DNA from: Magnetococcales bacterium HCHbin5
GTDB taxonomy: Bacteria > Pseudomonadota > Magnetococcia > Magnetococcales > Magnetaquicoccaceae
DNA: 39,821 nucleotides
Reading direction: 5' to 3'
Assembly (NCBI GenBank): GCA_002753505.1
Contig: PEAG01000029.1
Coordinates: 1 to 39,821 of the forward strand
Under the pieces are notes generated by a model. That model was not told the DNA's origin, did not search any database, and was given only the letters and a program-made list of their open reading frames with translations. A program made the position numbers and the translations under genes. Positions 4,562-35,173 of the stretch are shown piece by piece (the stretch's first letter is position 1; each line of letters starts with the position of its first letter).

Positions 4562-5083
4562 TCAATTGATCGGTACCTGAATCACAATATCATGACACTT
4601 GATACAACGCCCGGAAGGCGGATGGGGAATCCGCGAATTGGGCAAAATGGGCGGCCCCACCTTGGTAAAACTCGACACCTTCTCCCAAACCTTGCCAACC
4701 GGCGTAATGGGCTGACTGCCCGGCGGCGGCCCCCCCACAAACAGATGGCACTTCAAACAGGGCCCCCAATAACTGTGCGGCATGCGCTGCCCCGGCTTGA
4801 TCTGCGGAATACGACGCACCACCACCCGCCGCATCTTTGTCTGCGGCTGCAACACACCCCTGACCGTATCACTCATCTGGGGCTGAGTCGGCTTGGGCAT
4901 CGCACCAAAAACCTCACCCTGCAAACGCCGGGTCACGCTATCCATGCCAAACCGCGAAAAAAACTCCCTCAAAACATCCCCACCCTCAAAACCACCAATA
5001 ATCACCCCCATCAAAATAACCGCCCACGCCAGACGCGACCAAGCCTGGCGACCCAAGGTTTTTGATTTTATTTTGCGCTCCAT
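4562..5083 (-). CDS. mamT: MamT, magnetosome c-type cytochrome (two magnetochrome motifs)
   Basis: The start is the ATG at 5083, six bases after the mamS stop; a TTG at 5089 is an alternative. The 173-residue protein has a short cytoplasmic N-terminus and one membrane helix (AWAVILMGVIIGG). A periplasmic or magnetosome-lumen part follows with two CxxCH haem-binding motifs, CLKCH (4745-4759) and CIKCH (4592-4606). Each is preceded by a Gly-Pro/Gly-Arg turn as in magnetochrome domains, the haem modules unique to magnetotactic bacteria. MamT is thought to take part in iron redox balance during magnetite formation. It is tightly coupled to mamS upstream and a MamF-like gene downstream. Confidence 0.9.
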   Translation of the reverse strand: MERKIKSKTLGRQAWSRLAWAVILMGVIIGGFEGGDVLREFFSRFGMDSVTRRLQGEVFGAMPKPTQPQMSDTVRGVLQPQTKMRRVVVRRIPQIKPGQRMPHSYWGPCLKCHLFVGGPPPGSQPITPVGKVWEKVSSFTKVGPPILPNSRIPHPPSGRCIKCHDIVIQVPIN

Positions 5084-5089
5084 GCTCAA

Positions 5090-5689
5090 CTACCGCAGTT
5101 GATTGGACCAAAGAGCGAATCCCTCATCATTGCGCAGATGACACACCTTTTTTCCAATAACCAGTTTTTTAACATAGATGAGTGCCGTCTTGTCGAGTTT
5201 GTCAAACTGAAATCCGGTACCGGAGATGGCCGCATCGTGCTGCAACACACAGCCCATGTACTGCAAAAACCAGGAAGGTGCCACGGAGAGATGCTGCTCC
5301 TGACCCAGGGGACCGTTCAACCAGAGGTGAATTTGGCCATCCTGCTGCTGCAATTCAGAAATTTGTTGGATTGTACCGCTGAAACGCACCTGGGCCGCCT
5401 GTTCAAAAGGCATCATCCCCGGCTGTGGGCGGGTGGTGCGAGGAGGCGCATCCGGCACAACCGGTTGCACGACAGCCGCCGGAACGCTCTGCACAGGGGG
5501 CTGCACCGCCACAACCGGCCCGGCAGCGGTTGCGGACGGCCACCCCGGCTGTCCTGCCTGAACCGTCAGAGCCGTCTGGTCGACATTCGGACCCGCCACC
5601 CACCCCATGCTGCCCGGCAGGATGGCAACCACCACCACCGCCAGCACGGCAAACAGGCCCAACGCCGTCAGCCACTCTTCAAGTTTCAT
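5090..5689 (-). CDS. mamS: MamS, magnetosome protein
   Basis: The 199-residue product has an N-terminal membrane helix (TALGLFAVLAVVVVAIL), a Pro/Ala/Val-rich linker of about 70 residues, and a C-terminal globular domain. That domain contains FSGTIQQISEL and ends HLRNDEGFALWSNQLR, matching the conserved C-terminal RNDxGxALW ending of MamS. MamS affects crystal size in model magnetotactic bacteria; its biochemical activity is not known. The long linker is more extended than I expect for the family. It starts 28 bp after the DtxR-type gene and is followed at once by mamT, so the three are probably co-transcribed. Confidence 0.87.
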   Translation of the reverse strand: MKLEEWLTALGLFAVLAVVVVAILPGSMGWVAGPNVDQTALTVQAGQPGWPSATAAGPVVAVQPPVQSVPAAVVQPVVPDAPPRTTRPQPGMMPFEQAAQVRFSGTIQQISELQQQDGQIHLWLNGPLGQEQHLSVAPSWFLQYMGCVLQHDAAISGTGFQFDKLDKTALIYVKKLVIGKKVCHLRNDEGFALWSNQLR

Positions 5690-6526: not shown

Positions 6527-7621
6527 TCAACCCGCCTCCACCATATCACCTTCCGCATCCATCTCCTGCCGGCTGCGGTAGTAGCGATAGGTACCATAAC
6601 CGGCTGCTGCCAACAGACTGACCAGCAACACGGGGCCCCAGGCTCCCAGTCCCATGCCCAGGCCAAGGCTCAAACCGGTACCGTTCCAGATGGTACCCCC
6701 CTTGGCCGCAGCCGCCGCCACCGCGCTGCCGCCGGTGGAGCCGGTGCTGGCCAGTGCCTTGGTCGCTACCGGCTTGCTGGCCACCGCCGCCGCCACCTGG
6801 GTGGTTCCGGCCGCTTTCGCCGCCGCCACCTTGGTGGTCCCGGCCGCCTTTGCCGCCCCCAGCTCCTCCCAACCATCCAGCGGCGGCAGCACCGCCGCCC
6901 CGCCCCCCTTGGCAGCGGCTGCGGCACCGGCCGTCGCCACCCCCTTGGCCGCCGCACCACCAGCAGGTTTTAGCACAATCCATGTACCCGTCACATTGCC
7001 AGTCGCCAACGGAGCCTTGGTGAGGGTAAAACTTTTGCCCACCAAACCGGACAGATTGGCCTGGGTGGCTCCCTGCACCTGCAAGGCCACCAGATCTTTC
7101 CCGGCAACCCCTGCACCCCCCAGGGGTTTCATGAACAGCCAGCCTTTGGCTGTGCCACCCACCATGGGGGAGGGAATCACGGTAAAGGTTTTGCCGGCAA
7201 TGGTCTGCATCTGTGCCGCCTGTTGCGCACCTTCCAGCTGCATCAGCATCAGCTTGGAGCCGGCTCCCCCTTTGGCCGCCACCCCGGCGGCTCCCGCCGC
7301 ACTGGCGGCTCCCGTGCCAGAGTTCAGGACCAACCAGTTGGACATCCCTCCCACCACGGTCGGGGTCTGGCCCACCGTCACCGTCTTGCCCACCAGGCCC
7401 GCAATCTGGGCCGCCTGGCGACCGCCTTCAATCTTCAGTGCAACCGTGCTGCCGGCAGTTTCACCACTGGGCATCAAAAACAGCCATTTGGCCAACCCAT
7501 TGCCGAGACCGTTGCCGGCACCCGTCACTTTGCCCACAGTGAAGGTTTTACCTGCCAAAGCCGAGACTTCGCTTGCCTGTTGCATCCCTTCCAACTTGAA
7601 CATTAACGTTTCAACGGCCAT
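6527..7621 (-). CDS. mamD: MamD, magnetosome crystal-size protein with Mms6-like C-terminus
   Basis: A strong GGAGG lies 8 nt before the ATG. The 364-residue protein starts with four imperfect repeats of about 50 residues. Each runs (L/V)xLxGxxQAxxxxxLxGKxFTV...WLxxxP, with AGKTFTVGK, VGKTVTVGQ, AGKTFTVIP and VGKSFTLTK at corresponding places. An Ala/Thr/Lys-rich linker (KAAGTTKVAAAKAAGTTQ) follows, then GGTIWNGTGLSLGLGMGLG, a membrane helix and an acidic tail (QEMDAEGDMVEAG). The Gly-Leu repeat plus helix plus acidic tail is the Mms6 signature and is shared by MamD. MamD sits tightly on magnetite crystals and controls their growth. It heads the minus-strand block that continues with the regulator, mamS and mamT. 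Confidence 0.9.
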   Translation of the reverse strand: MAVETLMFKLEGMQQASEVSALAGKTFTVGKVTGAGNGLGNGLAKWLFLMPSGETAGSTVALKIEGGRQAAQIAGLVGKTVTVGQTPTVVGGMSNWLVLNSGTGAASAAGAAGVAAKGGAGSKLMLMQLEGAQQAAQMQTIAGKTFTVIPSPMVGGTAKGWLFMKPLGGAGVAGKDLVALQVQGATQANLSGLVGKSFTLTKAPLATGNVTGTWIVLKPAGGAAAKGVATAGAAAAAKGGGAAVLPPLDGWEELGAAKAAGTTKVAAAKAAGTTQVAAAVASKPVATKALASTGSTGGSAVAAAAAKGGTIWNGTGLSLGLGMGLGAWGPVLLVSLLAAAGYGTYRYYRSRQEMDAEGDMVEAG

Positions 7622-7817: not shown

Positions 7818-7935
7818 TGCATCCGTACCCCGTTCATATAAAAAAACAATTGCAGGGGCCTGGGGACCGTCACGGTCCCCAGTGGGGTGCAGGGGCAAAG
7901 CCCCGTGCATCCGTACCCCGTTCAATCTTTTAAAA
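7818..7935. repeat. Tandem partial copy of the composite repeat
   Basis: GTGCATCCGTACCCCGTTCA occurs at about 7818 and again at about 7903, each followed by an A-rich stretch and ATTGCAGGGG. Between them is one hairpin/stem unit (7862-7880, ACC type). This is an approximately 86-bp tandem unit that leads into full copy 2. The 196 bp from the mamD start up to here (7622-7817) hold no recognisable gene. Confidence 0.75.
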
Positions 7936-7940
7936 AAACA

Positions 7941-8385
7941 ATTGCAGGGGCCTGGGGACCGTCACGGTCCCCAGTGGGGTGCAGGGGCAAAGCCCCTGCA
8001 TGTAACGGGCGCGCTTTCACCAAAGCCCATTTGCGCAGCAAATGGGCGCAGCGCGCCCAAAACGCCCCGCAGGGGCACTCCTGGAGGGCGGCAGCCCGAC
8101 CGAGAGCTGGCCAAATTGGGCATGGCTTGGCAAAAAAACCGTTCCTGGCCTTGCGTCAAACAAAAAGCGGAAAAACCGCAAGTTCTGGTCTCTTACTCAA
8201 GCATTTTCCATGACATAACCGTGCGAGTCGGGCTGCCGCCCTCCCAAGGTCGCCCCTGCGGGGCGGTTTTGGGCGCGTTGCGCACATTTTCTGCGAAAAT
8301 GTGCTTTGGGAAAACGCGCAATTCAGCAGGGGCTTTGCCCCTGCACCCCACCGGGGACCGTGACGGTCCCCGGACCCCTGCAATC
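7941..8385. repeat. Full-length composite inverted-repeat element, copy 2 (reverse)
   Basis: Same architecture as copy 1, but the arm with TTTGCGCAGCAAATGGGC comes first and the arm with TTCTGCGAAAATGTGC second, so the element is inverted. Both terminal hairpins are of the ACC type (7954-7972; 8353-8371). The core (about 8105-8225) is recognisably the reverse complement of the copy 1 core (for example CCATGACATAACCGTGCG opposite the CGGTTATGTCATGG of copy 1). It separates mamD from the end of the main mam operon. Confidence 0.88.
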
Positions 8386-8516
8386 CCTTAAAAAAAGTTG
8401 CGCACATTTTCTGCGAAATTGTGCTTTGGGAAAACGCGCAATTCAGCAGGGGCTTTGCCCCTGCACCCCACCGGGGACCGTGACGGTCCCCGGACCCCTG
8501 CAATCCCTTAAAAAAA
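8281..8516. repeat. Nearly perfect 120-bp tandem duplication of a repeat arm
   Basis: 8281-8396 and 8401-8516 are the same sequence with a single A/T difference (8399-8420 region, GAAAAT versus GAAATT), giving a 120-bp period. The unit is the outer arm of copy 2 with its ACC hairpin (8353-8371 and 8473-8491). Such low divergence points to a very recent duplication. Confidence 0.85.
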
Positions 8517-8547: not shown

Positions 8548-9114
8548 CTACGACTCCAGCTCCATATCAATGCTCTCCACCGCATGGGCCAAACCATACG
8601 TGACCAGATAGGGCACCTCATGCAACTGCCGCCCCACCCCAATCTCAAATACCCCCCGCTGGGCCGTCTGCTGCCAAACCACCCGATACAACACCCTCTT
8701 CCCGGGAGCCGCCGTAAACTTTAACCGAATATGCCGGGAAATCTGCGTCCCCCCCTTCACCCCCAACTTGCGCGCCAACCGACCCTGCAAATCCGCCTTC
8801 AACACACCCAACAGATCCGCCCCCACCTGGGCCGCCAAACCCACCGAACAATCGGTCTCAATCGCCACCGTGGCCGAACGGAAAAATTCATGCTCACTCA
8901 CAAACGCCTGGTTGCCAAACCGGTTGTCCAACGGCACCTCCTCCGTCGCCAACACCCGCTCACTCTCCGCAACCAACCGCTGCCCAACCACCCGCAAACC
9001 ACCCCCAACACCCTCCGACCACGACCGCCGCAACCGGGCCGCCCGCCGCTTGGAACGGCTAACCGCCGCCACCGTCAAGGCCCCCACCGCAACCAACGAG
9101 AGCAAAGGCAACAT
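8548..9114 (-). CDS. Unrecognised membrane-anchored protein at the end of the main mam operon
   Basis: The 188-residue product has an N-terminal hydrophobic segment (MLPLLSLVAVGALTVAAV) followed by a very basic stretch (SRSKRRAARLRR). A soluble domain follows with LATEEVPLDNRFGN, VSEHEFFRSATV and, near the C-terminus, YRVVWQQTAQRGVFEIGVGR and PYLVTYGLAHAVES. I do not recognise the family. A clear paralogue lies at 34556-35173, sharing LATE(E/D)VP(L/M)DNRFGN, SEHEF, YRV(V/I)WQQ and the ending PYLV(T/A)YGL(A/S)HAVES. It starts 20 bp after the mamB stop, where many magnetotactic genomes carry mamS; the true mamS here is at 5090. Its position makes a magnetosome role likely; the function is unknown. 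Confidence 0.85.
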   Translation of the reverse strand: MLPLLSLVAVGALTVAAVSRSKRRAARLRRSWSEGVGGGLRVVGQRLVAESERVLATEEVPLDNRFGNQAFVSEHEFFRSATVAIETDCSVGLAAQVGADLLGVLKADLQGRLARKLGVKGGTQISRHIRLKFTAAPGKRVLYRVVWQQTAQRGVFEIGVGRQLHEVPYLVTYGLAHAVESIDMELES

Positions 9115-9134
9115 GGTCTACACCCCCCTCCGAC

Positions 9135-10016
9135 TCATCCCACCCCCAACGGCGTCAAATAGACCGTAATCGTGCTCTTCTTGTCATTCAAGCCCCGGTG
9201 CAGCTTGTCCTTGAGCACATCCACAATCAAATCACCTTCGTATACCTTCAGCTTGCCATCCACCTGCACATGCAAATCCACATGCAACTCCTCCCCCATG
9301 ATCCTGGCCCGCAAATAGGCAATCCCCAATACCCCCGGCGATTTTTTGGCAATACGATAAATCTCCTCCAGATCCTCCCGATCCGGCATGGCATCCATCA
9401 AACCCTGAATGGCCTCCACAATCAACTCAAAACCAATGCGAAACACAATCAACGCCAACGCCATGCTCGCCAACGGATCCGCAATCGGATAGCCAAACGT
9501 CGCAAACAACAACCCAACCAACACCCCAATGGAAGAGATGGCATCCGAACGGTTGTCCCAGGCATTGGCCATGATGGCCGGACTGTTCAACTCCCGCCCC
9601 ACACACCCCTGATAACGAAACATGATCTCATTGCTGATGATGGAAATGATCGCCCCCAACACCGCCAACCGACTGGGTGCCTCATACTCCCCCTTCATCA
9701 CACTGGACAACGAGGTGACCAACAGAGCCGAAGCCCCGGCCGCCAGAATCAACCCCACCGTGGCAGAGGAGATAAACTGAATCTTGCCATGCCCATAGGC
9801 ATGATCCTCGTCCGCCGGTGCCTTGGAAATACGCAAACTCAATACCGTAACACCACTGGCAATCACATCCGCACTGGAATGAAACGCATCCGCCAACAAG
9901 GCCGCACTCCCCGACAACAAAGCCATGGAGCCCTTGAAAATCACCTGCAACACGTTGACCAGGACCGCATACCAAACCACCTGATCACGACATCGGGAAC
10001 AATAGGGAAATTTCAT
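9135..10016 (-). CDS. mamB: MamB, cation diffusion facilitator of the magnetosome membrane
   Basis: The 293-residue product belongs to the cation diffusion facilitator family. It opens with the MamB-type MKFPYCSRCRDQVVW (CxxC pair) and has six predicted membrane helices. The transmembrane metal-site motif is DAFHSSAD, with a partner at ANAWDNRSDA. The cytoplasmic C-terminal domain (from about residue 210) has HVDLHVQVDGKL. MamB imports iron into the magnetosome and is also needed for membrane invagination and MamM partnering in model species. mamQ is 34 bp upstream and the unrecognised gene 20 bp downstream, so the genes are co-transcribed. Confidence 0.95.
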   Translation of the reverse strand: MKFPYCSRCRDQVVWYAVLVNVLQVIFKGSMALLSGSAALLADAFHSSADVIASGVTVLSLRISKAPADEDHAYGHGKIQFISSATVGLILAAGASALLVTSLSSVMKGEYEAPSRLAVLGAIISIISNEIMFRYQGCVGRELNSPAIMANAWDNRSDAISSIGVLVGLLFATFGYPIADPLASMALALIVFRIGFELIVEAIQGLMDAMPDREDLEEIYRIAKKSPGVLGIAYLRARIMGEELHVDLHVQVDGKLKVYEGDLIVDVLKDKLHRGLNDKKSTITVYLTPLGVG

Positions 10017-19360: not shown

Positions 19361-22210
19361 TCAGCCGCGCCTGGGCAGTCGACGACCGACCACCGAACCA
19401 ACCGCATCACCCAACGCATTGGAGATGCCACTGAACATTCTTTCCACCGGTACCACCACCCGCTCCGGCCGCACCACCGCAACCGGCGGCGGCAACGTTT
19501 TCACCGATACCGCCGCCGGCACGCTGGCCGCTTCCACACGGGGCGACTGCACCGCCCGGCGCACCGCATTGGCCGACTCTGCCGCCAGAACGGCCGACTC
19601 CCGCACCACATTGGCCGATTCGCTGGCCAGGCGGGCCGACTCACGAATGGCCGCCAACAGTGCCATCTCTGCCGCCGTCACCTCCGACAGCTCCAACCCG
19701 GCCGGCTTGGACGGTGTTGGAATCGCCGGTGCAGCCGCCGGTTCCAGCGACGGTTCACGCGCTGGCACCGTCGCCACCCGGGCTCCACGCACCTCCACCC
19801 GCACCCCCGCCGGTGAAGGAACAGCCGGTCTCGGTGCCCCGGTCGGCCTCGGTGCCGTCACGGGACGCACCTCCTCTGCCTTGGGAGGCAGCTTGCTGGC
19901 TTTGACCTCCACCTTGAGGGCAGGCTTCGCCGGCGGCCGTGCCACCGCGACAGACTCCCGACCGGTATCACCCGGAGGCAGCTGCTCCCGGTTCCAGGGA
20001 TTATCTTCCAGTACATAAGTGACAGGTGCCGTCGAGGCCTGCTCCGCGCGCGCCCTGACTAGGCTGATGAGTTGCCCCAACTCAAAAGGTTCCACCCGCT
20101 CAGCCCGCGGCAACAGCCCCGCATCCACGGTTGTCAAGCTGGCAATCCCCTCCGCCTCCCCGACAAACGGCGGCACCAGCGGCGGTGCAACCGCCACACG
20201 CGGCCGAACCACCTCGCGTTGCACCACCGGCTCTGCCTGCGGCCTCGGGCTCTGTTGGCTCCGTTCCTGGTTGACGACGGATCCCGGTTGTGGCCCAGAC
20301 GCCCAGGGATTCACCCCCCAATCCCGTTGCAACTGCCCGTGGGCGGTGGCCTCTTCCAAACCCTCCCTCTCCGCCGCAACAGTGGTCCGCTGCTCCCGCA
20401 GCACCCGTTTTACACGGTCCATGTCAAAGGGTTCCACACCTTCCAACACGGGCACCTCCTCCACCGCTTCCACTACCGCCTCAGCCACCTCGGCCGCATC
20501 GGTCTGCCATACCGGGATGGTCGACAGCTCCTCTGCCGTTTCAACCGCCACCCAGGGAATGGGTGCATCCGGGGCAATCCCCTGCCCCTGCACAGCTCTC
20601 TTCTCTGCTGCCGCCGTTGCCGCAGCCAGCAGAGCCGCCGACACCATGGCAGGCTCAAGCTGCGCCTCTTCCTGTGCCTCCGGCAACTCCGCAGCAGCAA
20701 CCTCCTCCGCATGTGCCTCCAGCAGCTCAGGAACCGCCTCCTCCCGCGCAGTTGCCGCCTCGACAGCGGTCTCCGACCCCACCGGCAGCTCCTGCAGCTG
20801 CTCAGCCGACTCCTCGCTCTCCTCTTCCGCCTCGGCCGCCGCCTGGGCAAACAGGGAGACCAGCGTCGCCGGGGAAAAGCGGGTTTCCGGTACCACTCCT
20901 GTCACCGACTTGACCGTTTCCGTCACCGGCTTGACAACCTCGGCCTCAACCGCCGGCTTGGGAGGAAAGGTCAGGCGAACAATGATCTCCTCGCCCAGGT
21001 TTTCGCTTTTCCTGAACACATCCCGCCGGGCCTGTCCCTCCGTGATCAGTGCCACATGTTGCAGGTCGAAGGGCTCCACATCATCCACCCTGCCCAGGGG
21101 ACGGCCAAAACCGGCACGGCTGCCACTTTGCTCGACCGTATCGGAATTCCGCAACACCGGATCCACTGCGTCGTCAGCCCTCTCCGGCAACCAGGGATTG
21201 GAGCGGCGACGGGCCTGCGAAGCCGCCCGCAGAGGCACCGCATCCGCCCAGGAGGGAAACGCCATCGAGGCCGGGGAGACCACATCCAACTCGGCAACCG
21301 CCAGCTCCGCTTCCGGCTCCGGCAGCGGCTCCGACAAAACAACCTCGTCACCCTCATCCCACCCGGCAACCGCCGCCAGCACCGGGGTCTCCGGCAGCGG
21401 CTCCGCCGGGGCCGGACCCAGAAACTCGGCTGCAAAACGGGGCAAACCGCTCGGACGCGCAAACAGACCCGGTTGCCGCACCGCCCGCTCCATGGCCCCC
21501 TCCGCCACAGCCCCGACCAGAGCCGGATGCACAACAGGCTGGGCATCCTCCACCGCTTCCAGGCCAGTGGCCTCCTGCTCCAGCCACCCCTGCCCAGGCA
21601 TGGCACGGGAAAATTCGATCACTCTTTCAAAATCAGCTCGCCTGGTCATCTTTTTTCTCGCCCAATCCGGTTGTTTCTCCACCCCAACCCCGCTCCAAAC
21701 TGCACGATGCGCATCCACAACGGCCGCCCCATCTGCAGAATCGTCCGCCGCTGCCGGGGTGAGATCGCCCGGGGGGGCACCCATCCTGTCCGGACCGGTC
21801 TCCACTGCCACCACCGCCGCTTCTGCCACCAGCAGATCGCCGCGCGTGTCCGGCAAAGGAAGCGCAGGCTCAACCGCCACGGACATACCCGGCACAGAGG
21901 CCTCTGTGCGCAGCGAATCCGCCGACTCCTCCAACTTTTCTATCTCTTCCCCTGTCAAGTCAAACATAAGGGCCAGCTCAACGAGACCCGCTTCGCTCTC
22001 GGTCGCCGCGCCTGCCTCGGCCGCCTTACTGTCGCTCTCCTCCAACTTTTCTATCTCTTCCCCTGTCAAGTCAAACATAAGGGCCAGCTCAACGAGACCC
22101 GCTTCGCTCTCGGTCGCCGCGCCTGCCTCGGCCGCCTTACTGTCGCTCTCCTCCAACGTTCTCTCCTCATCATGCGCTTGTGAAGAAATCGGTCGTGACC
22201 TGCAACTCAA
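19361..22210 (-). CDS. Large acidic, repetitive MamJ-like protein (by position and composition)
   Basis: The 949-residue product lies between mamE and mamK, the place of mamJ, and is Ala/Glu/Pro/Val-rich and acidic like MamJ, but about twice its usual length and without sequence identity I can confirm. The first codon is TTG at 22210; a second TTG at 22156 has a better GAGGAG upstream. The N-terminus holds two 37-residue tandem repeats (LEESDSKAAEAGA..., 21931-22152). Three VEPF(D/E) units follow (about 21053-21082, 20416-20439, 20069-20095), each near an Asn-Pro-Trp (about 21191, 20303, 19993). A C-terminal Ala/Ser/Glu amphipathic helix contains RESARLASESANVVRESAV. MamJ tethers magnetosomes to MamK; the same role is inferred. 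Confidence 0.7.
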   Translation of the reverse strand: MSCRSRPISSQAHDEERTLEESDSKAAEAGAATESEAGLVELALMFDLTGEEIEKLEESDSKAAEAGAATESEAGLVELALMFDLTGEEIEKLEESADSLRTEASVPGMSVAVEPALPLPDTRGDLLVAEAAVVAVETGPDRMGAPPGDLTPAAADDSADGAAVVDAHRAVWSGVGVEKQPDWARKKMTRRADFERVIEFSRAMPGQGWLEQEATGLEAVEDAQPVVHPALVGAVAEGAMERAVRQPGLFARPSGLPRFAAEFLGPAPAEPLPETPVLAAVAGWDEGDEVVLSEPLPEPEAELAVAELDVVSPASMAFPSWADAVPLRAASQARRRSNPWLPERADDAVDPVLRNSDTVEQSGSRAGFGRPLGRVDDVEPFDLQHVALITEGQARRDVFRKSENLGEEIIVRLTFPPKPAVEAEVVKPVTETVKSVTGVVPETRFSPATLVSLFAQAAAEAEEESEESAEQLQELPVGSETAVEAATAREEAVPELLEAHAEEVAAAELPEAQEEAQLEPAMVSAALLAAATAAAEKRAVQGQGIAPDAPIPWVAVETAEELSTIPVWQTDAAEVAEAVVEAVEEVPVLEGVEPFDMDRVKRVLREQRTTVAAEREGLEEATAHGQLQRDWGVNPWASGPQPGSVVNQERSQQSPRPQAEPVVQREVVRPRVAVAPPLVPPFVGEAEGIASLTTVDAGLLPRAERVEPFELGQLISLVRARAEQASTAPVTYVLEDNPWNREQLPPGDTGRESVAVARPPAKPALKVEVKASKLPPKAEEVRPVTAPRPTGAPRPAVPSPAGVRVEVRGARVATVPAREPSLEPAAAPAIPTPSKPAGLELSEVTAAEMALLAAIRESARLASESANVVRESAVLAAESANAVRRAVQSPRVEAASVPAAVSVKTLPPPVAVVRPERVVVPVERMFSGISNALGDAVGSVVGRRLPRRG
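21931..22152 (-). repeat. 111-bp exact tandem duplication inside the MamJ-like gene
   Basis: Two copies with period 111 (21931-22041 and 22042-22152) plus the first few bases of a third at 22153. The period is a multiple of three, so the frame is kept and encodes two identical 37-residue blocks with LEESDSK, GLVELALMFDLTG and EEIEK. I see no difference between the copies, so the duplication is recent or kept identical by conversion. Confidence 0.9.
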
Positions 22211-28279: not shown

Positions 28280-31207
28280 ATGAACGCAATACCTAGAAAA
28301 TTTCTGCTCATTCTGATGGACCTGGGGCTCACTCTGCTCTTCCTGGTGATGATTGTGGTCGCCGTACTGGATTTCAACAATCGATTGAAGCGGGAGGAGC
28401 AGCAGGTGCATCAAGGCGGGCAGAGCGCGCCCGGACCCTCCATCTCCACCACCCTGGCCCAGTTGCAAAAGCAGAAAGAGTCCTTGACCTCCCAGGTAGA
28501 CAAAAGCCGTGCCGACATGCAGAAGCTTTGGGAGGAGAACACGGTTCTGACGGCCGAAATCCGCAAAAAGAATGCAGAAGCCCGCAAACTGCTGGAGGAC
28601 AATGTGGCCCTGCTGGGCCAGAATGCGGCCCTGTTGGCGCAACTGAACCAGGAAGAGAGCAAGGCCACCGCCCCGATCAAACCACCCTCCGCAGCCGATA
28701 AATCAGCCGCCGGGGATGCGGCGGTGATCCAGTCGGGGAGTGAAAGCCCCCAGGCCAAGGCACTGCGCCAGGAAAATGCCGCCTTGAACGCACAGCTGGC
28801 ACAAGTGGATAGCACCCTCCAACGGTTGTACCAGCAGAAAGAGGCCCAATCGACCCCCACAGCCAAAACCTTGGCGCATCAGCCCGGTGAAACAGCCACC
28901 GCCGGCCAGGCCAGCTCCCGGACCACCCCCACAGACAAGAGCCCTGACAGCAGCGGCCACTCCACCCTGGTCAAGGGCAGCCTGGATGCGGTACCGACGC
29001 CAGAACCACCGCCGGCGATGGGATTTTGGGATCAGATGGTCGCCACCTTTCAAGACAAACCCAAAACAGCCGCCACCGCTGCCAGTTCCCCCACCACTGC
29101 CCCCCCTGGTGTGGTTGAGCCCCTCCCGCAGACGGCAGAGACAAAGGGCTCTGCGGCGGCCAGAGAGGCTGCGACAGCCTCCACCACCCCCGTGGTAGTG
29201 GGTCGGCTGGCCCCTCATGCCGAGTCGGCTGTCCCGTTGGAAAAGGGGATGGTTCCCCCCAAGGTATTGGATAAGCTGGCCTCCTCCTGGCAGGAGTCCC
29301 CGTCGGCAGCCGCCGCCAGGGTTGACAAAACGGCCCGGGAGGCAGCTGCTCCTGCAGCACCAGCCGCTGAGAACAGAGAGCGGGTTGTCCCCCCTGCCCC
29401 AGCCGGTCAGGCAACGGCGGCGGCAACCGCCGATACCGGCAAAAAAGAGGAGATGGGGTTTTGGGGTAAATTGCTGGACAGTTTCCAGGAACCGACCAAA
29501 ACGACACCCAGCACGGTTACCGTTACACTGCCCACCCCCTCCCTGCCCCAAAAACAGGAGGCGACTGCCGTCACGGCACCCGCCACGGAACCGGATCAGA
29601 CTCCGGTGGTGGTGGCCAAACGGCATGAAAAAACAGCTGCGCCGCCCCCAGCCCATACGGCCAAACCGTCGGACAGAAGGGAATCGCCCGCTACCGTATC
29701 GCCAACGGGTGGGGCGCGTGCAGAGCGGACCGAAGTGGTTGACCTGCCGCCCGCTCCCACCGCAATCAAACCTGCGGCCCCCAGTGCAGTACCCACGGAT
29801 AAACCTGTTGTGGCCATCAACAAACCCGTTGTCAGCGTGGACAAGCCCATTGCCACCGCAGCCAAGCCTCCTGTGGCTGAAGAGAGAGCCGCTGTTACCG
29901 TAAACAAACCGGCGACAGCAGATAAACCGGCAACGATGGATAAACCGGTGACGGTGGATAAACCGGTGACGGTGGATAAACCGGTGACGGTGGATAAACC
30001 AGCAACGGCGGATAAACCAGTGACGGCGGATAAACCAGTGACGGCAGATAAACCGGTGACGGCAGATAAACCGGTGACGGCAGATAAACCGGTGACGGCA
30101 GATAAACCGGTGACGGCAGATAAACCGGTGACGGCAGATAAACCGGTGACGGCAGATAAACCGGCAACGGCGGACGCTGCGCCGCCGGTCGCCAGCCCGG
30201 CCAAAGCAGGAGGTGAGGAGGGTAAGGGGCAGTGGTGGTCCGGCATGATTGAGCTGTTTCAGGGTACAGCTACTGCACCCGGAACGGCCCTGGAAAAGTC
30301 CAAAACCGCGCTGAAATCCCCTTCGGCGGAGGTCGCCCGGTTGACGGAAAAATCACCGACCGCCGCCGTCCCGGCTGCTTTGCCGACGGTTCCGCAACCG
30401 TCGTCGATCTCCCCGTCCCCCGCAGGGGAGAAACAGCATGCCCCGGCGGCAACGGCTCCGGTGGTAACGGCTCCGACGGCGGGCTCGACGGTGGTCGCCA
30501 GCAAATCGGAAGCCGCAAAGACAGCGACGCTGCCTGCGCCTGCCCCCGTAACAGCACCGAGGGGTTTGCCAGCCGAGCAGGCCAAGGTGGTGTTGGAGTC
30601 GGTGGGTGAGGGCCCCCATGTTTTGCCGGTCTCCACGGTGGATATTGTGGCCACCCGCAAGCAGCTCATGACGCGGATTCAGAAGGCGTTGCAGCAGCAA
30701 AAAATTGCCTCCGAAATAGACGAACAGGAGGGGACGCTCTATCTGCCCGGGTTGCTGGACTTTAAAAACGATGCCTTGGAGATCACTGCGGACAAGCAGC
30801 AGGGTATGCGTGTATTGGCCGATGTATTGGCCAAGCAACTGCCCTGTTTTACCCGGCAGACCACACCGGATGCGGGGTGTATTGAAGGGTCTCAGGCGGT
30901 CAAACTGGATGCCCTGGTTGTCGTGGGCAACTCCGGTCCGGCCCCGGTGGGCTCCAGCGCGTTCCGGCACAACTGGAATCTGGCCAATGCCCGCGCATTA
31001 CAGACCTTTTCCGAACTGTTAAAAACCCATCCCCAGTTGAATGATATGCGCAACATGCAGGAGCAGGCTCTGTTTCGATTGGATGGTTTTCTGCCAGCGG
31101 AGCGGCACCACAAAGCGGCCGGACCGGATCGGAAAAAGCCGCTGCGCCGGGTAGAGTTGCGCTTTATCATGGGGCCTTCGCCACTTGCCTCGCGGCCACA
31201 TCCATGA
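28280..31207 (+). CDS. Large membrane-anchored low-complexity protein with OmpA/MotB-like C-terminus
   Basis: The 975-residue product begins with a short cytosolic end and one membrane helix (LTLLFLVMIVVAVLDF), like MotB/OmpA-type proteins. A coiled-coil region follows (about 60-130; LEDNVALLGQNAALLAQL). A long Pro/Ala/Thr/Lys-rich stretch holds fourteen hexapeptides of the DKP type (29912-30163). It has three short aromatic units: GFWDQMVATFQ (29018-29053), GFWGKLLDSFQ (29453-29488) and WWSGMIELFQ (30227-30262). The C-terminal 200 residues end NWNLANARALQTF...RRVELRFI, the OmpA/MotB peptidoglycan-binding pattern. No clear Shine-Dalgarno was seen before the ATG. It overlaps YcjX by 4 bases, so the two are co-translated. 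Function unknown. Confidence 0.8.
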   Translation: MNAIPRKFLLILMDLGLTLLFLVMIVVAVLDFNNRLKREEQQVHQGGQSAPGPSISTTLAQLQKQKESLTSQVDKSRADMQKLWEENTVLTAEIRKKNAEARKLLEDNVALLGQNAALLAQLNQEESKATAPIKPPSAADKSAAGDAAVIQSGSESPQAKALRQENAALNAQLAQVDSTLQRLYQQKEAQSTPTAKTLAHQPGETATAGQASSRTTPTDKSPDSSGHSTLVKGSLDAVPTPEPPPAMGFWDQMVATFQDKPKTAATAASSPTTAPPGVVEPLPQTAETKGSAAAREAATASTTPVVVGRLAPHAESAVPLEKGMVPPKVLDKLASSWQESPSAAAARVDKTAREAAAPAAPAAENRERVVPPAPAGQATAAATADTGKKEEMGFWGKLLDSFQEPTKTTPSTVTVTLPTPSLPQKQEATAVTAPATEPDQTPVVVAKRHEKTAAPPPAHTAKPSDRRESPATVSPTGGARAERTEVVDLPPAPTAIKPAAPSAVPTDKPVVAINKPVVSVDKPIATAAKPPVAEERAAVTVNKPATADKPATMDKPVTVDKPVTVDKPVTVDKPATADKPVTADKPVTADKPVTADKPVTADKPVTADKPVTADKPVTADKPVTADKPATADAAPPVASPAKAGGEEGKGQWWSGMIELFQGTATAPGTALEKSKTALKSPSAEVARLTEKSPTAAVPAALPTVPQPSSISPSPAGEKQHAPAATAPVVTAPTAGSTVVASKSEAAKTATLPAPAPVTAPRGLPAEQAKVVLESVGEGPHVLPVSTVDIVATRKQLMTRIQKALQQQKIASEIDEQEGTLYLPGLLDFKNDALEITADKQQGMRVLADVLAKQLPCFTRQTTPDAGCIEGSQAVKLDALVVVGNSGPAPVGSSAFRHNWNLANARALQTFSELLKTHPQLNDMRNMQEQALFRLDGFLPAERHHKAAGPDRKKPLRRVELRFIMGPSPLASRPHP
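29912..30163 (+). repeat. 18-bp minisatellite coding for DKP hexapeptides
   Basis: Fourteen tandem 18-bp units encode the hexapeptides ATADKP, ATMDKP, three VTVDKP, ATADKP and eight VTADKP. The last units are nearly identical in DNA (GTGACGGCAGATAAACCG), so the array is young and can change length without frameshift. There are no spacers, so it is not a CRISPR array. Confidence 0.92.
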
Positions 31208-32631
31208 CCGACACGACGCCGTTCGCCCCTTTAGGTATGTTGTTGGCCAGCGCGCAGAAAACGTTGACCGAGTGGTTGCATCTGGCCATGGATCAGACGG
31301 TGCGCCTGGCTGTCACCGGTCTGAATCAGAGTGGCAAGACGGTTTTTATTACCGCCCTGGTCCATCAACTGCTGCATGCCCGGCAGGATTCCGGTCTGCC
31401 CTTTTTTGAGTGTGTCAGCAGCAATCGCTTTGCGGGTTCCAGGGTGATGATGCAGCCGGATGTGGATGTTTCCGCCTTTCGTTATGATCAATTTATCCAA
31501 CCGTTGACCCAACAGCGGCCCAGTTGGCCCACCCGCACGGATGAGTTGAGTGAGATTCGGCTGGCCATCCGTTTTCAGCCCACCGGTTTGATTCATCGGC
31601 AGTTGTCTGATGCCAGCACCCTCTATCTGGATATTATCGATTATCCGGGGGAGTGGCTGCTGGATCTGCCCATGCTGGAGCTCTCCTATGCGGAGTGGTC
31701 GGCTCAGATTTTTCAATCCTGCATGGAGGAACCCCGTCGCACACTGTCGACCGAGTGGCGTACTCTGCTGCAATCCATGGAGATGCGCAAGGCGGATGAT
31801 GCCCTGTTGCGGCAGGCCAGCGGGTTGTATACCCAGTTTTTGATGCGCTGCAAGCTGGAGTATGGTCTCAGCCTGTTGCAACCGGGTCGTTTTACCGTGC
31901 CTGGCGAATTGAAAGGGACGCCGTTGCTCACCTTTTGTCCCCTGCCGGACTGCGGGGAGGAGAGTCGAGGCCCGGAGAGCGTCTACAGCATCATGGAAGA
32001 GCGGTTCAACGCCTACAAGGAGCGGGTGGTTTATCGGTTCTATAAAGATCATTTTTCCCGTTTTGACCGGCAGATTGTGCTGATCGATCTGCTCAAGGCT
32101 CTCAGCAAGGGGCCAGAAAATTTTTCCGACATGCGGGTGGCGTTGGAGTCCATTTTGCGGAATTTTCATTATGGAACCTCCGGCCTGCTCAGTCGGCTGT
32201 TGTGGCCCAAGATTGACAAATTGTTGTTTGTTGCCACCAAGGTGGATCATGTGGCGGCCAATCAGCACCATAATCTGGAGCGACTGCTCAACCGTATCGT
32301 CAACAAGCCGGCCAATGATGCCATCTTTCAGGGGGTTGAGGTAAAGACCATGGCTCTCTCCTCGGTCACCTGCACCCGAACGGTGGTGCGTGAGCATGAT
32401 GGGCGGCGTCTTTCGTTTGTGCAGGGGATTCCCAAGGGGCGGAACAAGGAAATTTTGCTGTTTCCGGGCGAGATTCCCGAGTCTTTGCCCCGGGCGGAGG
32501 ATTGGGATGCCAATCGGTTCAACTTTATGGAGTTTGAGCCGCCGCGACTGATTGACCCGGAGGCGGCGACGTTGCCGCATATCCGGCTGGACCAGGCGTT
32601 GCAATTTTTATTGGGAGACAAGTTGAGCTGA
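31204..32631 (+). CDS. ycjX: YcjX-family (DUF463) nucleotide-binding protein
   Basis: The 475-residue product has a phosphate-binding loop (GLNQSGKTV) near residue 40 and the family segments IIDYPGEWLLDLPMLE (DxPG, switch-like), CPLPD and KIDKLLFVATKVDHV (TKxD, guanine specificity). The YcjX family is a conserved GTP-binding-like protein with poorly known function, often paired with YcjF near stress-response genes. It overlaps the upstream large gene by 4 bases and the downstream YcjF-like gene by one base (TGATG), so the three are translationally coupled. Confidence 0.93.
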   Translation: MTDTTPFAPLGMLLASAQKTLTEWLHLAMDQTVRLAVTGLNQSGKTVFITALVHQLLHARQDSGLPFFECVSSNRFAGSRVMMQPDVDVSAFRYDQFIQPLTQQRPSWPTRTDELSEIRLAIRFQPTGLIHRQLSDASTLYLDIIDYPGEWLLDLPMLELSYAEWSAQIFQSCMEEPRRTLSTEWRTLLQSMEMRKADDALLRQASGLYTQFLMRCKLEYGLSLLQPGRFTVPGELKGTPLLTFCPLPDCGEESRGPESVYSIMEERFNAYKERVVYRFYKDHFSRFDRQIVLIDLLKALSKGPENFSDMRVALESILRNFHYGTSGLLSRLLWPKIDKLLFVATKVDHVAANQHHNLERLLNRIVNKPANDAIFQGVEVKTMALSSVTCTRTVVREHDGRRLSFVQGIPKGRNKEILLFPGEIPESLPRAEDWDANRFNFMEFEPPRLIDPEAATLPHIRLDQALQFLLGDKLS

Positions 32632-33695
32632 TGGATGGGGCCCGGACATGGATCCCGCCGGTTGAACTGGCTGTGACTGCCAGCCCAAAGGTTGGCCGGT
32701 CGGCGGCGGCTGCTCCGCGGCCGGTGGTGTTGTCGTTGGAGCAGGATGGGGAGGCGGCCTCCCGGGTCGAGCCGGTTGAGGCTGTCATGGCAGCGGGGGA
32801 GTCGGCCGAATCGGCGTCGGCGACGGCCACGGGTCGGGGGGGGGTGCTGACCGGGTTGTTGCTGGTGGCCATTCTGTTGTGGGTCAGTTTGACGGTGCAG
32901 GATGCGGTGTTGTTTTTGCGTCAGCAGTGGCAGAGTCATCTGTTGCTCGGGCTGTTTTTTACGCTGTTGACGCTTGTTTTGAGTGGTTTGTTGCTCACTC
33001 TGGTTGGGCGGGAGTGGCGTCGGTTCAGGCGGTTGCGGACGCTGACCGTGTTGCGTCAGGAGAGTTATCGTGTGATCAGCCAGCAGACCTTCGGGTTGGG
33101 GCAGCCGTTGTTGCGTCGGGTTGCTTTGCTCTATCAGGAGCGGGAGGAGATGGTTGCCTGTTTGGAGTCGTTTTATCAGCAGAGTGACGACTATTTGGGG
33201 GACCGGGAGTTGTTGCTGCTGTTTTCCGACCAGGTACTTTCCGTAGTGGATGCGCGGGCGTATCAGGTGGTTGTGCGTCATGCCTCGGCGGCGGCGGTGA
33301 TGACGGCCATCAGTCCCATGGCCTGGTTGGATGCGTTGTTTTTTTTGTGGCGCAATCTTTGGATGGTGCGGGAGATTGCTGAGGTGTATGGGGCCCGTCC
33401 CGGGGCGGCGGGCTCTTTGGTGTTGTTGCGGCAGGCGATTCGGGGCATGATGGGGGCGGGGTTGACGGATCTGTTGGCCACGGGTGTTGCGCACTCCATG
33501 GGGGATTCGGTGGCGGCCTTGTTGATGGCCAAGACGGGTCAGGGGCTTTCCAACGGTCTGTTTATTGCCCGCATTGGTTTGCAGACCATGCAGGCGTGTC
33601 GGCCGTTGCCTTTCATGGGTGAGGCTCCCGGGTTGGCGCAGATTCGCAAGGCGTTGCAGAGGGAGCTTGGCAACGGCAAATCGCAGGAGCGTTAG
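32631..33695 (+). CDS. ycjF: YcjF-family (DUF697) membrane protein
   Basis: The 354-residue protein begins with a polar region of about 70 residues, then two hydrophobic helices (GLLLVAILLWVSLTV and LLGLFFTLLTLVLSGLLL). The DUF697-type C-terminal domain carries MTAISPMAWLDALFFLWRNL, REIAEVYGARPG and GLTDLLATGVAHSMGDSVAA. YcjF proteins are inner-membrane partners of YcjX. It is the last gene of the plus-strand run that starts at the ParA-like gene; the 28 bp after its stop lead straight into a repeat array. Confidence 0.92.
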   Translation: MDGARTWIPPVELAVTASPKVGRSAAAAPRPVVLSLEQDGEAASRVEPVEAVMAAGESAESASATATGRGGVLTGLLLVAILLWVSLTVQDAVLFLRQQWQSHLLLGLFFTLLTLVLSGLLLTLVGREWRRFRRLRTLTVLRQESYRVISQQTFGLGQPLLRRVALLYQEREEMVACLESFYQQSDDYLGDRELLLLFSDQVLSVVDARAYQVVVRHASAAAVMTAISPMAWLDALFFLWRNLWMVREIAEVYGARPGAAGSLVLLRQAIRGMMGAGLTDLLATGVAHSMGDSVAALLMAKTGQGLSNGLFIARIGLQTMQACRPLPFMGEAPGLAQIRKALQRELGNGKSQER

Positions 33696-33723: not shown

Positions 33724-33953
33724 ATCAAGCAACGCAAAACGATTGCAGGGGTCCGGGGAGCGTCACGCTCCCCGGTGGGGTGCAGGGGCAAAACCCCTGC
33801 ATGAACGGCGCGTTTTCCCAAAGCAAATTTTCGCAGAAATCAAGCAACGCAAAACGATTGCAGGGGTCCGGGGACCGTCACGGTCCCCGGTGGGGTGCAG
33901 GGGCAAAGCCCCTGCTGAATGGCGCGTTTTCCCAAAGCAAATTTTCGCAGAAA
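33724..33953. repeat. 115-bp tandem duplication of a repeat arm with compensatory hairpin change
   Basis: 33724-33838 and 33839-33953 are near-identical direct copies beginning ATCAAGCAACGCAAAACGA. The first holds GGGGAGCGT-ACGCTCCCC (33755-33773) and the second GGGGACCGT-ACGGTCCCC (33870-33888). Both arms of the stem have changed together. The second copy is the left arm of the full element at 33855. Confidence 0.88.
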
Positions 33954-34317
33954 ATTTGCGCAACGCGCCCAAAACCGCCCCGCAGGGGCGACCTTGGGAG
34001 GGCGGCAGCCCGACGCGCACGGTTATGTTATGGAAAATGTTTGGATAAGAAAGCAGGACGTTCGGATATTAGGCTTTAATTGTATTACGCTTTTTGTTTG
34101 ACACAAGGCCAGGATCGGTTTTTTTTCCAAGCCAAATGATCTTTTGCCCGCTCTCGGTCGGGCTGCCGCCCTCCAGGAGTGCCCCTGCGGGGCGTTTTGG
34201 GCGCGCTGCGCCCATTTGCTGCGCAAATGGGCTTACGAGAAAGCGCGCCCTTGCATGCAGGGGCTTTGCCCCTGCACCCCACCGGGGACCGTGACGGTCC
34301 CCGGACCCCTGCAATCG
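33855..34317. repeat. Full-length composite inverted-repeat element, copy 3 (forward)
   Basis: Same orientation as copy 1. It is bounded by CGATTGCAGGGGTCCGGGGA and its exact reverse complement at the right (34298-34317). Both terminal hairpins are of the ACC type (33870-33888; 34284-34302). The core (34020-34150) shares CGCACGGTTATG and ACAAGGCCAGGA with copy 1, with small indels. It lies between the YcjF-like gene and the second member of the unrecognised gene family. Confidence 0.88.
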
Positions 34318-34440
34318 TTTTAAAAGATTTGCCCCTGCACCCCACCGGGGAGCGTGACGCCCCCCGGACCCCTGCAATCGTTTTAAAAGATTAGAAAAAA
34401 ACATGGGCGTGGTCATCATGTCAGCGCATATTTGTTCATG
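34318..34440. repeat. Tail modules of the composite repeat after copy 3
   Basis: A further stem-loop (34347-34365) with one A-C mismatch in the stem is followed by CCCCTGCAATCG, AAAGATTAGAAAAAAACATG and the TCATCATGTCAGCGCATA module. The same order occurs at 4031-4205. The next 115 bp up to 34556 contain only the ribosome site of the following gene. Confidence 0.78.
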
Positions 34441-34555: not shown

Positions 34556-35173
34556 ATGCTCCCATTTATTGCAGCCGGTGCGGTATCCATTCTCGGCGTT
34601 GTCATGGGTAAACGACTGGCGAAAGCGCACAACAGACAGGAAAACGCGCACAGCCTCCGACTGAAACCCGGCCTGAAACTCCAGGTGTTGGCCCACCATG
34701 TCCTGGAAGAGAGCCACCTTGTCCTGGCAACGGAAGATGTCCCCATGGACAACCGGTTTGGCAACAAGACACTGAGCAGCGAACACGAATTCAGCCAAAC
34801 CGCCACCATCGAACTGGAACTGGGCAACAACAAACGGGTCTCGGCAGCGGCCAAGACCGACTTTTGGCACCTGCTGGAAAACAAAGCGGAACTGGAGTTG
34901 GGCAAAAGCCTGGGCATCGAGGTGGGCAGCCAGATCAACCGGCGGGTGCGACTGCGCTTTGCCACCGACCCCGGTCAATTTGTCCGCTATCGGGTCATCT
35001 GGCAGCAACAAAGCCAACGGGGTATCCTGGAGATTCGAGCCGGCAGACAACTGTTTTACCTGCCCTACCTGGTGGCCTACGGGCTGAGCCATGCGGTGGA
35101 AAGCCTGCCCGGAGAGTCCCTCTCTCCCGTACAAAAAATATCCGAATCAACAGACGAAGAGCACGCAGAATAA
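34556..35173 (+). CDS. Unrecognised membrane-anchored protein, paralogue of the mam-operon gene at 8548
   Basis: The start at 34556 is supported by AGGAGG 5-6 nt upstream. The 205-residue product starts with a hydrophobic segment (MLPFIAAGAVSILGVVMG) and a basic stretch. It shares LATEDVPMDNRFGN, SSEHEFSQTA, YRVIWQQQSQRGILEI and PYLVAYGLSHAVES with the gene at the end of the main mam operon. The conserved core runs the whole length, with a longer Glu-rich tail here. I do not recognise the family. The copy in the mam operon suggests this one too is a magnetosome protein outside the main cluster; that is inference. It converges on the next gene with only 7 bp between stops. Confidence 0.85.
   Translation: MLPFIAAGAVSILGVVMGKRLAKAHNRQENAHSLRLKPGLKLQVLAHHVLEESHLVLATEDVPMDNRFGNKTLSSEHEFSQTATIELELGNNKRVSAAAKTDFWHLLENKAELELGKSLGIEVGSQINRRVRLRFATDPGQFVRYRVIWQQQSQRGILEIRAGRQLFYLPYLVAYGLSHAVESLPGESLSPVQKISESTDEEHAE

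What the first reader, a model, noticed from the sequence alone, without database searches (positions are those of the whole stretch)
8548..9114. Unknown protein family in the mam operon with a second gene outside it
This gene follows mamB by 20 bp and has a strong paralogue at 34556. Shared blocks (LATE(E/D)VP, DNRFGN, SEHEF, YRV(V/I)WQQ, YGL(A/S)HAVES) span the whole length, and each has a short hydrophobic N-terminus with a basic stretch. I know no named mam gene with these features. It could be a new magnetosome-associated family.
Basis: partly seen in the sequence, partly recalled or inferred. Interest (0 to 1): 0.66.

Follow-up and report, generated by a model that had tools for sequence, protein, structure and literature searches.

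The report
Unnamed membrane-anchored magnetosome-cluster protein family
The gene belongs to an undescribed protein family found in nearly all Magnetococcales genomes searched, usually beside the genes that build magnetic organelles, and its predicted shape resembles pore-forming toxins although it appears to sit on the inner face of the membrane.

Summary
Observation confirmed. ORF 8548-9114(-), 188 aa, starts 20 bp after mamB and has a paralogue at 34556-35173(+): 43% identity over the whole length, E 1e-51. Both are under purifying selection (dN/dS about 0.2). No Pfam, NCBIfam, PADLOC or PDB-sequence family matches; MamS and MamT lie elsewhere in the window. The family is in 45 of 48 Magnetococcales genomes, and in about 38 of those 45 a copy lies within about 12 kb of mam genes, including a complete genome that is probably Magnetococcus marinus MC-1. 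It is also in four MAGs with MamO filed as Gammaproteobacteria or Thiotrichales, in 1 of 291 Cyanobacteriota searched, and in one non-magnetotactic proteobacterium. It is absent from three other proteobacteria with true MamB. Nearly every copy has a 16-17-residue N-terminal anchor followed by lysine/arginine (domain predicted cytoplasmic) and a beta domain. Two AlphaFold models (pLDDT 88 and 92) match aerolysin-like pore-forming proteins in Foldseek (best E 2e-5, TM 0.53). The insertion segment is not a clear transmembrane hairpin. I favour an oligomeric scaffold or adaptor on the cytoplasmic face of the magnetosome or inner membrane. That function is inferred; family, linkage and anchor pattern are shown; fold and topology are predictions.

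The parts
8548..9114 (-). family gene, copy 1 (188 aa), 20 bp after mamB
9123..9131 (-). ribosome-binding-site-like GGAGGGGGG upstream of the ATG at 9114
   Evidence: read from sequence
9061..9114 (-). N-terminal hydrophobic anchor (residues 1-18), followed by RSKRRAARLRR
8566..8997 (-). aerolysin-like beta domain (residues 40-183)
8764..8820 (-). inserted helix (residues 99-117) within the beta domain
34556..35173 (+). family gene, copy 2 (205 aa), paralogue outside the mamAB operon
9135..10016 (-). mamB (CDF transporter), directly upstream of copy 1
6527..7621 (-). mamD, downstream of copy 1
5090..5689 (-). mamS (shows that copy 1 is not MamS)
4562..5089 (-). mamT (two magnetochrome motifs)
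28280..31207 (+). ZorB/MotB-like protein with a long repeat linker; recurrent neighbour of the family
31204..32631 (+). YcjX-like protein (DUF463), upstream of copy 2
32631..33695 (+). DUF697/YcjF-like membrane protein, upstream of copy 2

Best explanation
Both genes encode members of a Magnetococcales-centred, magnetosome-cluster-linked family. A short N-terminal reverse signal-anchor tethers an aerolysin-fold beta domain to the cytoplasmic face of the inner/magnetosome membrane. Most likely the domain does not make a pore. It probably oligomerises there, as aerolysin-fold proteins commonly do, and acts as a scaffold or adaptor that docks lineage-specific partner proteins onto the membrane: MamB-type transporters, coiled-coil and kinase modules, or ZorAB/MotAB-like and YcjXF complexes. 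Shown here: family, conservation, linkage to the magnetosome cluster, anchor pattern. Predicted: fold and topology. Inferred: oligomerisation, magnetosome localisation, adaptor role.
For: Family in 45/48 Magnetococcales genomes and in none of about 350 other Pseudomonadota sampled. Same-contig linkage to mam genes in about 38/45. Recurrent compact gene order mamS-mamT-coiled coil-FAM-hybrid histidine kinase in about 20 genomes, with gaps under 100 bp and frequent start/stop overlaps. Two gammaproteobacterial MAGs with MamO also carry it, one 10 bp upstream of a MamB/MamV-type CDF. Anchor: in 58 of 60 rows no K/R precedes the hydrophobic core, and 3.45 K/R on average follow it, the reverse of a Sec signal peptide. 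Fold: two models of different members, pLDDT 88.3 and 91.6, whose best PDB matches are almost all aerolysin-like proteins, best E 2e-5 and TM 0.53 to 3kog. Invariant residues lie in the beta strands and turns (E58, N64, S73, W147, Q149, G154, P168, L175), not in the insertion.
Against: No experiment places the protein on magnetosomes. Immediate neighbours differ between clades, so no single partner is fixed. TM-scores to solved structures are 0.3-0.53, so the fold link is at superfamily level only. One magnetotactic Magnetococcales genome at 99% completeness (G035) lacks it, and some copies sit near no mam genes.
Confidence: 0.45

Rival explanations
1. Hitchhiker: a general membrane or stress protein that works with ZorAB-like, YcjX/YcjF or two-component modules and lies in the magnetosome island because islands collect such genes; it has no direct role in magnetosomes.
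For: Copies next to ZorA-like/ZorB-like, YcjX/YcjF and a CDF-NifX/YgaP-TM/sigma54-regulator cluster away from mam genes; members in a cyanobacterial MAG and in UBA5122, both without MamO.
Against: Linkage to mam genes in about 38/45 genomes across many families; in three congeneric genomes it sits between mamQ/mamB and mamD; found again in gammaproteobacterial MAGs with mam genes.
Confidence: 0.27
2. Accessory subunit of CDF metal transporters (MamB and relatives), for example a cytoplasmic stabiliser or metal-delivery partner.
For: mamB-FAM 20 bp apart in the window; FAM then MamB/MamV-type CDF 10 bp apart in L112; CDF-NifX fusion then FAM, 39 bp apart or overlapping, in L033 and L034.
Against: Most copies are not next to a CDF; in G002 and G005 mamB has left this position while FAM stays; no conserved Cys and few conserved His.
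Confidence: 0.13
3. A true pore: the inserted segment converts to a beta hairpin and the oligomer opens a channel in the magnetosome membrane.
For: Closest solved folds are pore-forming proteins, including one whose insertion segment is helical in the soluble form (the latter point from general knowledge).
Against: The insertion segment is poorly conserved, of near-zero mean hydrophobicity, and shows no dominant strand periodicity (0.28 versus 0.25 for helix); the predicted topology puts it in the cytoplasm, tethered by its own anchor.
Confidence: 0.1

Closest known systems
Aerolysin-like / ETX-MTX2 beta-pore-forming protein superfamily (for example PDB 3kog)
   Same: Long-stranded beta sheet with an inserted segment; Foldseek E 2e-5, probability 1.0, TM 0.53
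   Different: No sequence match, no signal peptide, N-terminal membrane anchor, predicted cytoplasmic side, no receptor-binding domain, no clear transmembrane hairpin
MamS and other named Mam/Mms proteins
   Same: Small single-anchor protein coded next to mamB, where MamS stands in Magnetospirillum
   Different: No NCBIfam Mam/Mms model matches; the real MamS is at 5090-5689
Unnamed 'hypothetical' genes downstream of mamT in Ca. Magnetaquicoccus inordinatus UR-1 (PMC6783814)
   Same: UR-1 carries a family member (L099, contig RXIU01000008) in the region where that paper reports 11 hypothetical and chemotaxis genes
   Different: In the main text the paper names maq1 only and does not recognise this family, its order-wide spread, its paralogues or its fold

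Membership tests
Named Mam/Mms families (NCBIfam) | match to a curated Mam/Mms model | tested here: not met
   0 families at E<=1 for both copies
MamS | MamS model match at the mamB-adjacent gene | tested here: not met
   MamS model hits 5090-5689, not 8548-9114
Magnetosome-associated proteins | gene located in magnetosome gene clusters across species | tested here: met
   about 38/45 Magnetococcales genomes
Magnetosome-associated proteins | protein present on purified magnetosomes | not testable with these tools
   no proteome data for these strains was found or searched in detail
Aerolysin-like / ETX-MTX2 superfamily | aerolysin-type beta fold | tested here: met
   two predicted models, almost all top PDB matches of this class, at moderate TM-score
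Aerolysin-like / ETX-MTX2 superfamily | sequence family match (Pfam, PDB profile search) | tested here: not met
Aerolysin-like / ETX-MTX2 superfamily | amphipathic membrane-insertion hairpin | tested here: inconclusive
   periodicity 0.28 (strand) against 0.25 (helix) in residues 99-117, 0.37 against 0.16 in residues 84-98; low hydrophobicity
Aerolysin-like / ETX-MTX2 superfamily | pore formation | not testable with these tools
   needs purified protein and a bilayer assay
Zorya / other anti-phage systems | match to a PADLOC model | tested here: not met
   0 families for both copies; only neighbouring genes are ZorA/B-like

The most novel reading that the evidence does not exclude
An aerolysin-type fold has been taken into the cell as an organelle protein: a membrane-tethered oligomer on the cytoplasmic side of the magnetosome membrane that organises magnetosome partners in magnetotactic cocci, possibly doing there what MamJ/MamY-type linkers do in Magnetospirillum.
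Probability: 0.2. Interest if true: 0.82.

Novelty: new variant of a known kind. Interest (0 to 1): 0.6.

Why it matters
Magnetotactic cocci arrange and build magnetosomes without several of the accessory proteins known from Magnetospirillum, and how they do so is an open question (PMC6783814 discusses which protein links MamK filaments to magnetosomes in this group). A cluster-linked family conserved across almost the whole order is a concrete candidate and can be tested in cultured Magnetococcales. An aerolysin-type fold tethered to the cytoplasmic side of a membrane would also extend what that fold is known to do.

Tried and rejected
MamS-type identity rejected. Sequence homologues in Pfam, NCBIfam, PADLOC and PDB sequences: none. 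Plasmid and phage collections: none (using the two non-magnetotactic members as queries, one per collection). Viral structure library: nothing at E<=0.001. A co-occurrence test inside Magnetococcales has little power, because nearly every genome has both mamB and the family (44 both, 1 family only, 2 mamB only, 1 neither; mamB counted generously), so genomic linkage was used instead. The cyanobacterial member first suggested a broad cyanobacterial family; 290 further cyanobacterial genomes had none. No paper in the library links aerolysin folds to magnetosomes (one search found one unrelated paper).

Full report
OBSERVATION. The ORF at 8548-9114(-) is real: 188 aa, a ribosome-binding-site-like GGAGG before its ATG, 20 bp after mamB. 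The paralogue at 34556-35173(+) aligns over the whole length (80/187 identical, E 1e-51). The own genome has exactly these two copies. Comparison with congeneric orthologues gives dN/dS of about 0.2 for both copies with most changes at codon position 3, so both are selected proteins. The second copy is outside the mamAB operon but inside the same island, after mamF-mamH and a ParA/ZorB-like/YcjX/YcjF run.

WHAT IT IS NOT. Pfam, NCBIfam and PADLOC give nothing for either copy, and neither phmmer (copy 1) nor a 35-sequence profile finds a solved relative. MamS, MamT, MamD, MamQ, MamP, MamO and MamN are accounted for elsewhere in the window.

DISTRIBUTION. A search of 61 genomes and a profile search of 398 Pseudomonadota find it in 45 of 48 Magnetococcales and in none of about 350 others. 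The exceptions in the order are G001 (75% complete), G032 (no true mamB either) and G035 (true mamB and a strong MamO match, family absent). Three non-Magnetococcales genomes with MamB over the curated cut-off (G122, G152, G290) lack it, so it is not a core gene of all magnetotactic bacteria. A scan of 84,980 species genomes returned 41 loci: Magnetococcales plus six others. Four of those six genomes carry MamO (G400, G401 filed as Gammaproteobacteria; G402, G403 filed as Thiotrichales), and two do not (Desmonostoc, UBA5122). That scan used a single peptide pattern (E[ED][VI][PA][LM]DNRxG), so the outside count is a lower bound. Only 1 of 291 Cyanobacteriota, 1 of 56 relatives of UBA5122 and 1 of 56 relatives of nTSbin2 have it; in each case the one is the genome already known. 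The Desmonostoc member has a zinc-ribbon-like N-terminus in place of the membrane anchor.

GENOMIC CONTEXT. In about 38 of 45 Magnetococcales genomes a copy lies within roughly 12 kb of mam genes (35 of 43 scored, plus the window, plus G011 and G034 by the coordinates). Several arrangements recur. (a) mamB-FAM-mamD-FeoA/DtxR-mamS-mamT in the window; in two congeners mamB has moved and FAM follows mamQ by 22-33 bp. (b) mamS-mamT-coiled coil-FAM-hybrid histidine kinase-response regulator-STAS-Hpt-CZB in about 20 genomes, FAM often overlapping the kinase gene (PAS-GAF-HisKA-REC-Hpt). (c) ZorA-like-ZorB-like-FAM, followed by a 1420-aa PilZ protein, in the G027 genome and relatives. G027 is a single 4,719,581-bp contig, which by my recollection of its size is Magnetococcus marinus MC-1; its copy lies between mamT and a mamH homologue. 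(d) ZorB-like-YcjX-YcjF-FAM for the second window copy and relatives. (e) outside the island, a CDF-NifX fusion-FAM-YgaP-like TM protein cluster. (f) in nTSbin2, FAM followed 10 bp on by a MamB/MamV-type CDF. The tree places the two window copies in separate, well-supported three-member clades, so the duplication predates the congeners compared. The order of deep branches is not resolved.

ANATOMY. In 58 of 60 rows no lysine or arginine precedes the hydrophobic N-terminal core and on average 3.45 follow within 15 residues (of the other two rows one, L107, lacks the anchor and the other, L100, was read from too early a start codon; L048 and L052 carry one arginine inside the stretch). By the positive-inside rule this predicts N-out, C-in: the domain is cytoplasmic. 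This is the reverse of a Sec signal peptide. AlphaFold models of the window copy (pLDDT 88.3, pTM 0.72) and of the G027 copy's domain alone (pLDDT 91.6, pTM 0.80) agree on the same order of long strands with one inserted helix. The two alignments overlap, so the models are not fully independent. Foldseek against the PDB returns aerolysin-like beta-pore-forming proteins at the top for both: best E 2e-5, probability 1.00, TM 0.53 (3kog, labelled putative pore-forming toxin). TM-scores are moderate, so I claim superfamily-level resemblance only. Conservation sits mainly in the strands and turns from residue 54 on (mean 0.60-0.82) and is lowest in the linker and the arms before the insertion (0.28-0.34), low in the insertion helix (0.43). 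The insertion shows no strong strand or helix periodicity and near-zero hydrophobicity, which does not favour a membrane hairpin.

MECHANISM. Shown: conserved family, purifying selection, cluster linkage, anchor pattern. Predicted: fold and topology. Inferred: that the anchored domain oligomerises on the cytoplasmic face of the magnetosome/inner membrane and docks partners that differ between lineages. I put this at 0.45, a hitchhiker in the island at 0.27, a CDF accessory at 0.13, a pore at 0.10.

LITERATURE. Koziaeva et al. 2019 (PMC6783814) report 11 genes, 'hypothetical and chemotaxis', downstream of mamT in UR-1 and name only maq1; the UR-1 family member (L099) lies in that region. Morillo et al. 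2014 (PMC3934378) list hypothetical genes shared by M. marinus and M. australis without describing this family in the passages read. PMC12791574 discusses maq1 only. I found no description of the family; subscription journals and supplementary tables were not searched.

CAVEATS. Genomes are mostly MAGs; two hits are filed as Thiotrichales, and one of these (L096) shows a Magnetococcales-type gene order. Gene neighbours were called from ORFs with cross-genome BLAST support, not from a gene finder. Other magnetotactic phyla could not be reached by handle.

Noticed in passing
window 7849-7976, 8349-8504, 33742-34378 and others: A palindromic repeat (GGGGACCGTGACGGTCCCC core): 15 copies in the window, 1493 in the genome against 1 for the control pattern. 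Clusters sit just 3' of copy 1 and just 5' of copy 2. REP/MITE-like.
   Followed up: partly
G000:C1:26882-27733 (L142:9868-10749): A second MamB over the family cut-off, 67% identical to the window's, away from other mam genes and next to SecF-like and MCP-like genes.
   Followed up: partly
window 28280-33695; L049, L050, L082, L091: ZorA-like/ZorB-like (MotAB-type) genes and a YcjX/YcjF pair recur in Magnetococcales magnetosome islands beside this family. Whether they serve defence, motility or magnetosomes is unknown.
   Followed up: partly
L099:10413-17908 and equivalents in about 20 genomes: A signalling module (hybrid kinase, response regulator, STAS, Hpt, CZB) follows the family gene in the magnetosome island.
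   Followed up: no
window 19361-22210: A 949-aa acidic protein with a tandem duplication near its N-terminus lies between mamE and mamK, where mamJ or maq1 stand in other species.
   Followed up: no
window 28280-31207: The ZorB-like protein is 975 aa here with a long KPVTAD repeat linker, against about 286 aa in G027.
   Followed up: no
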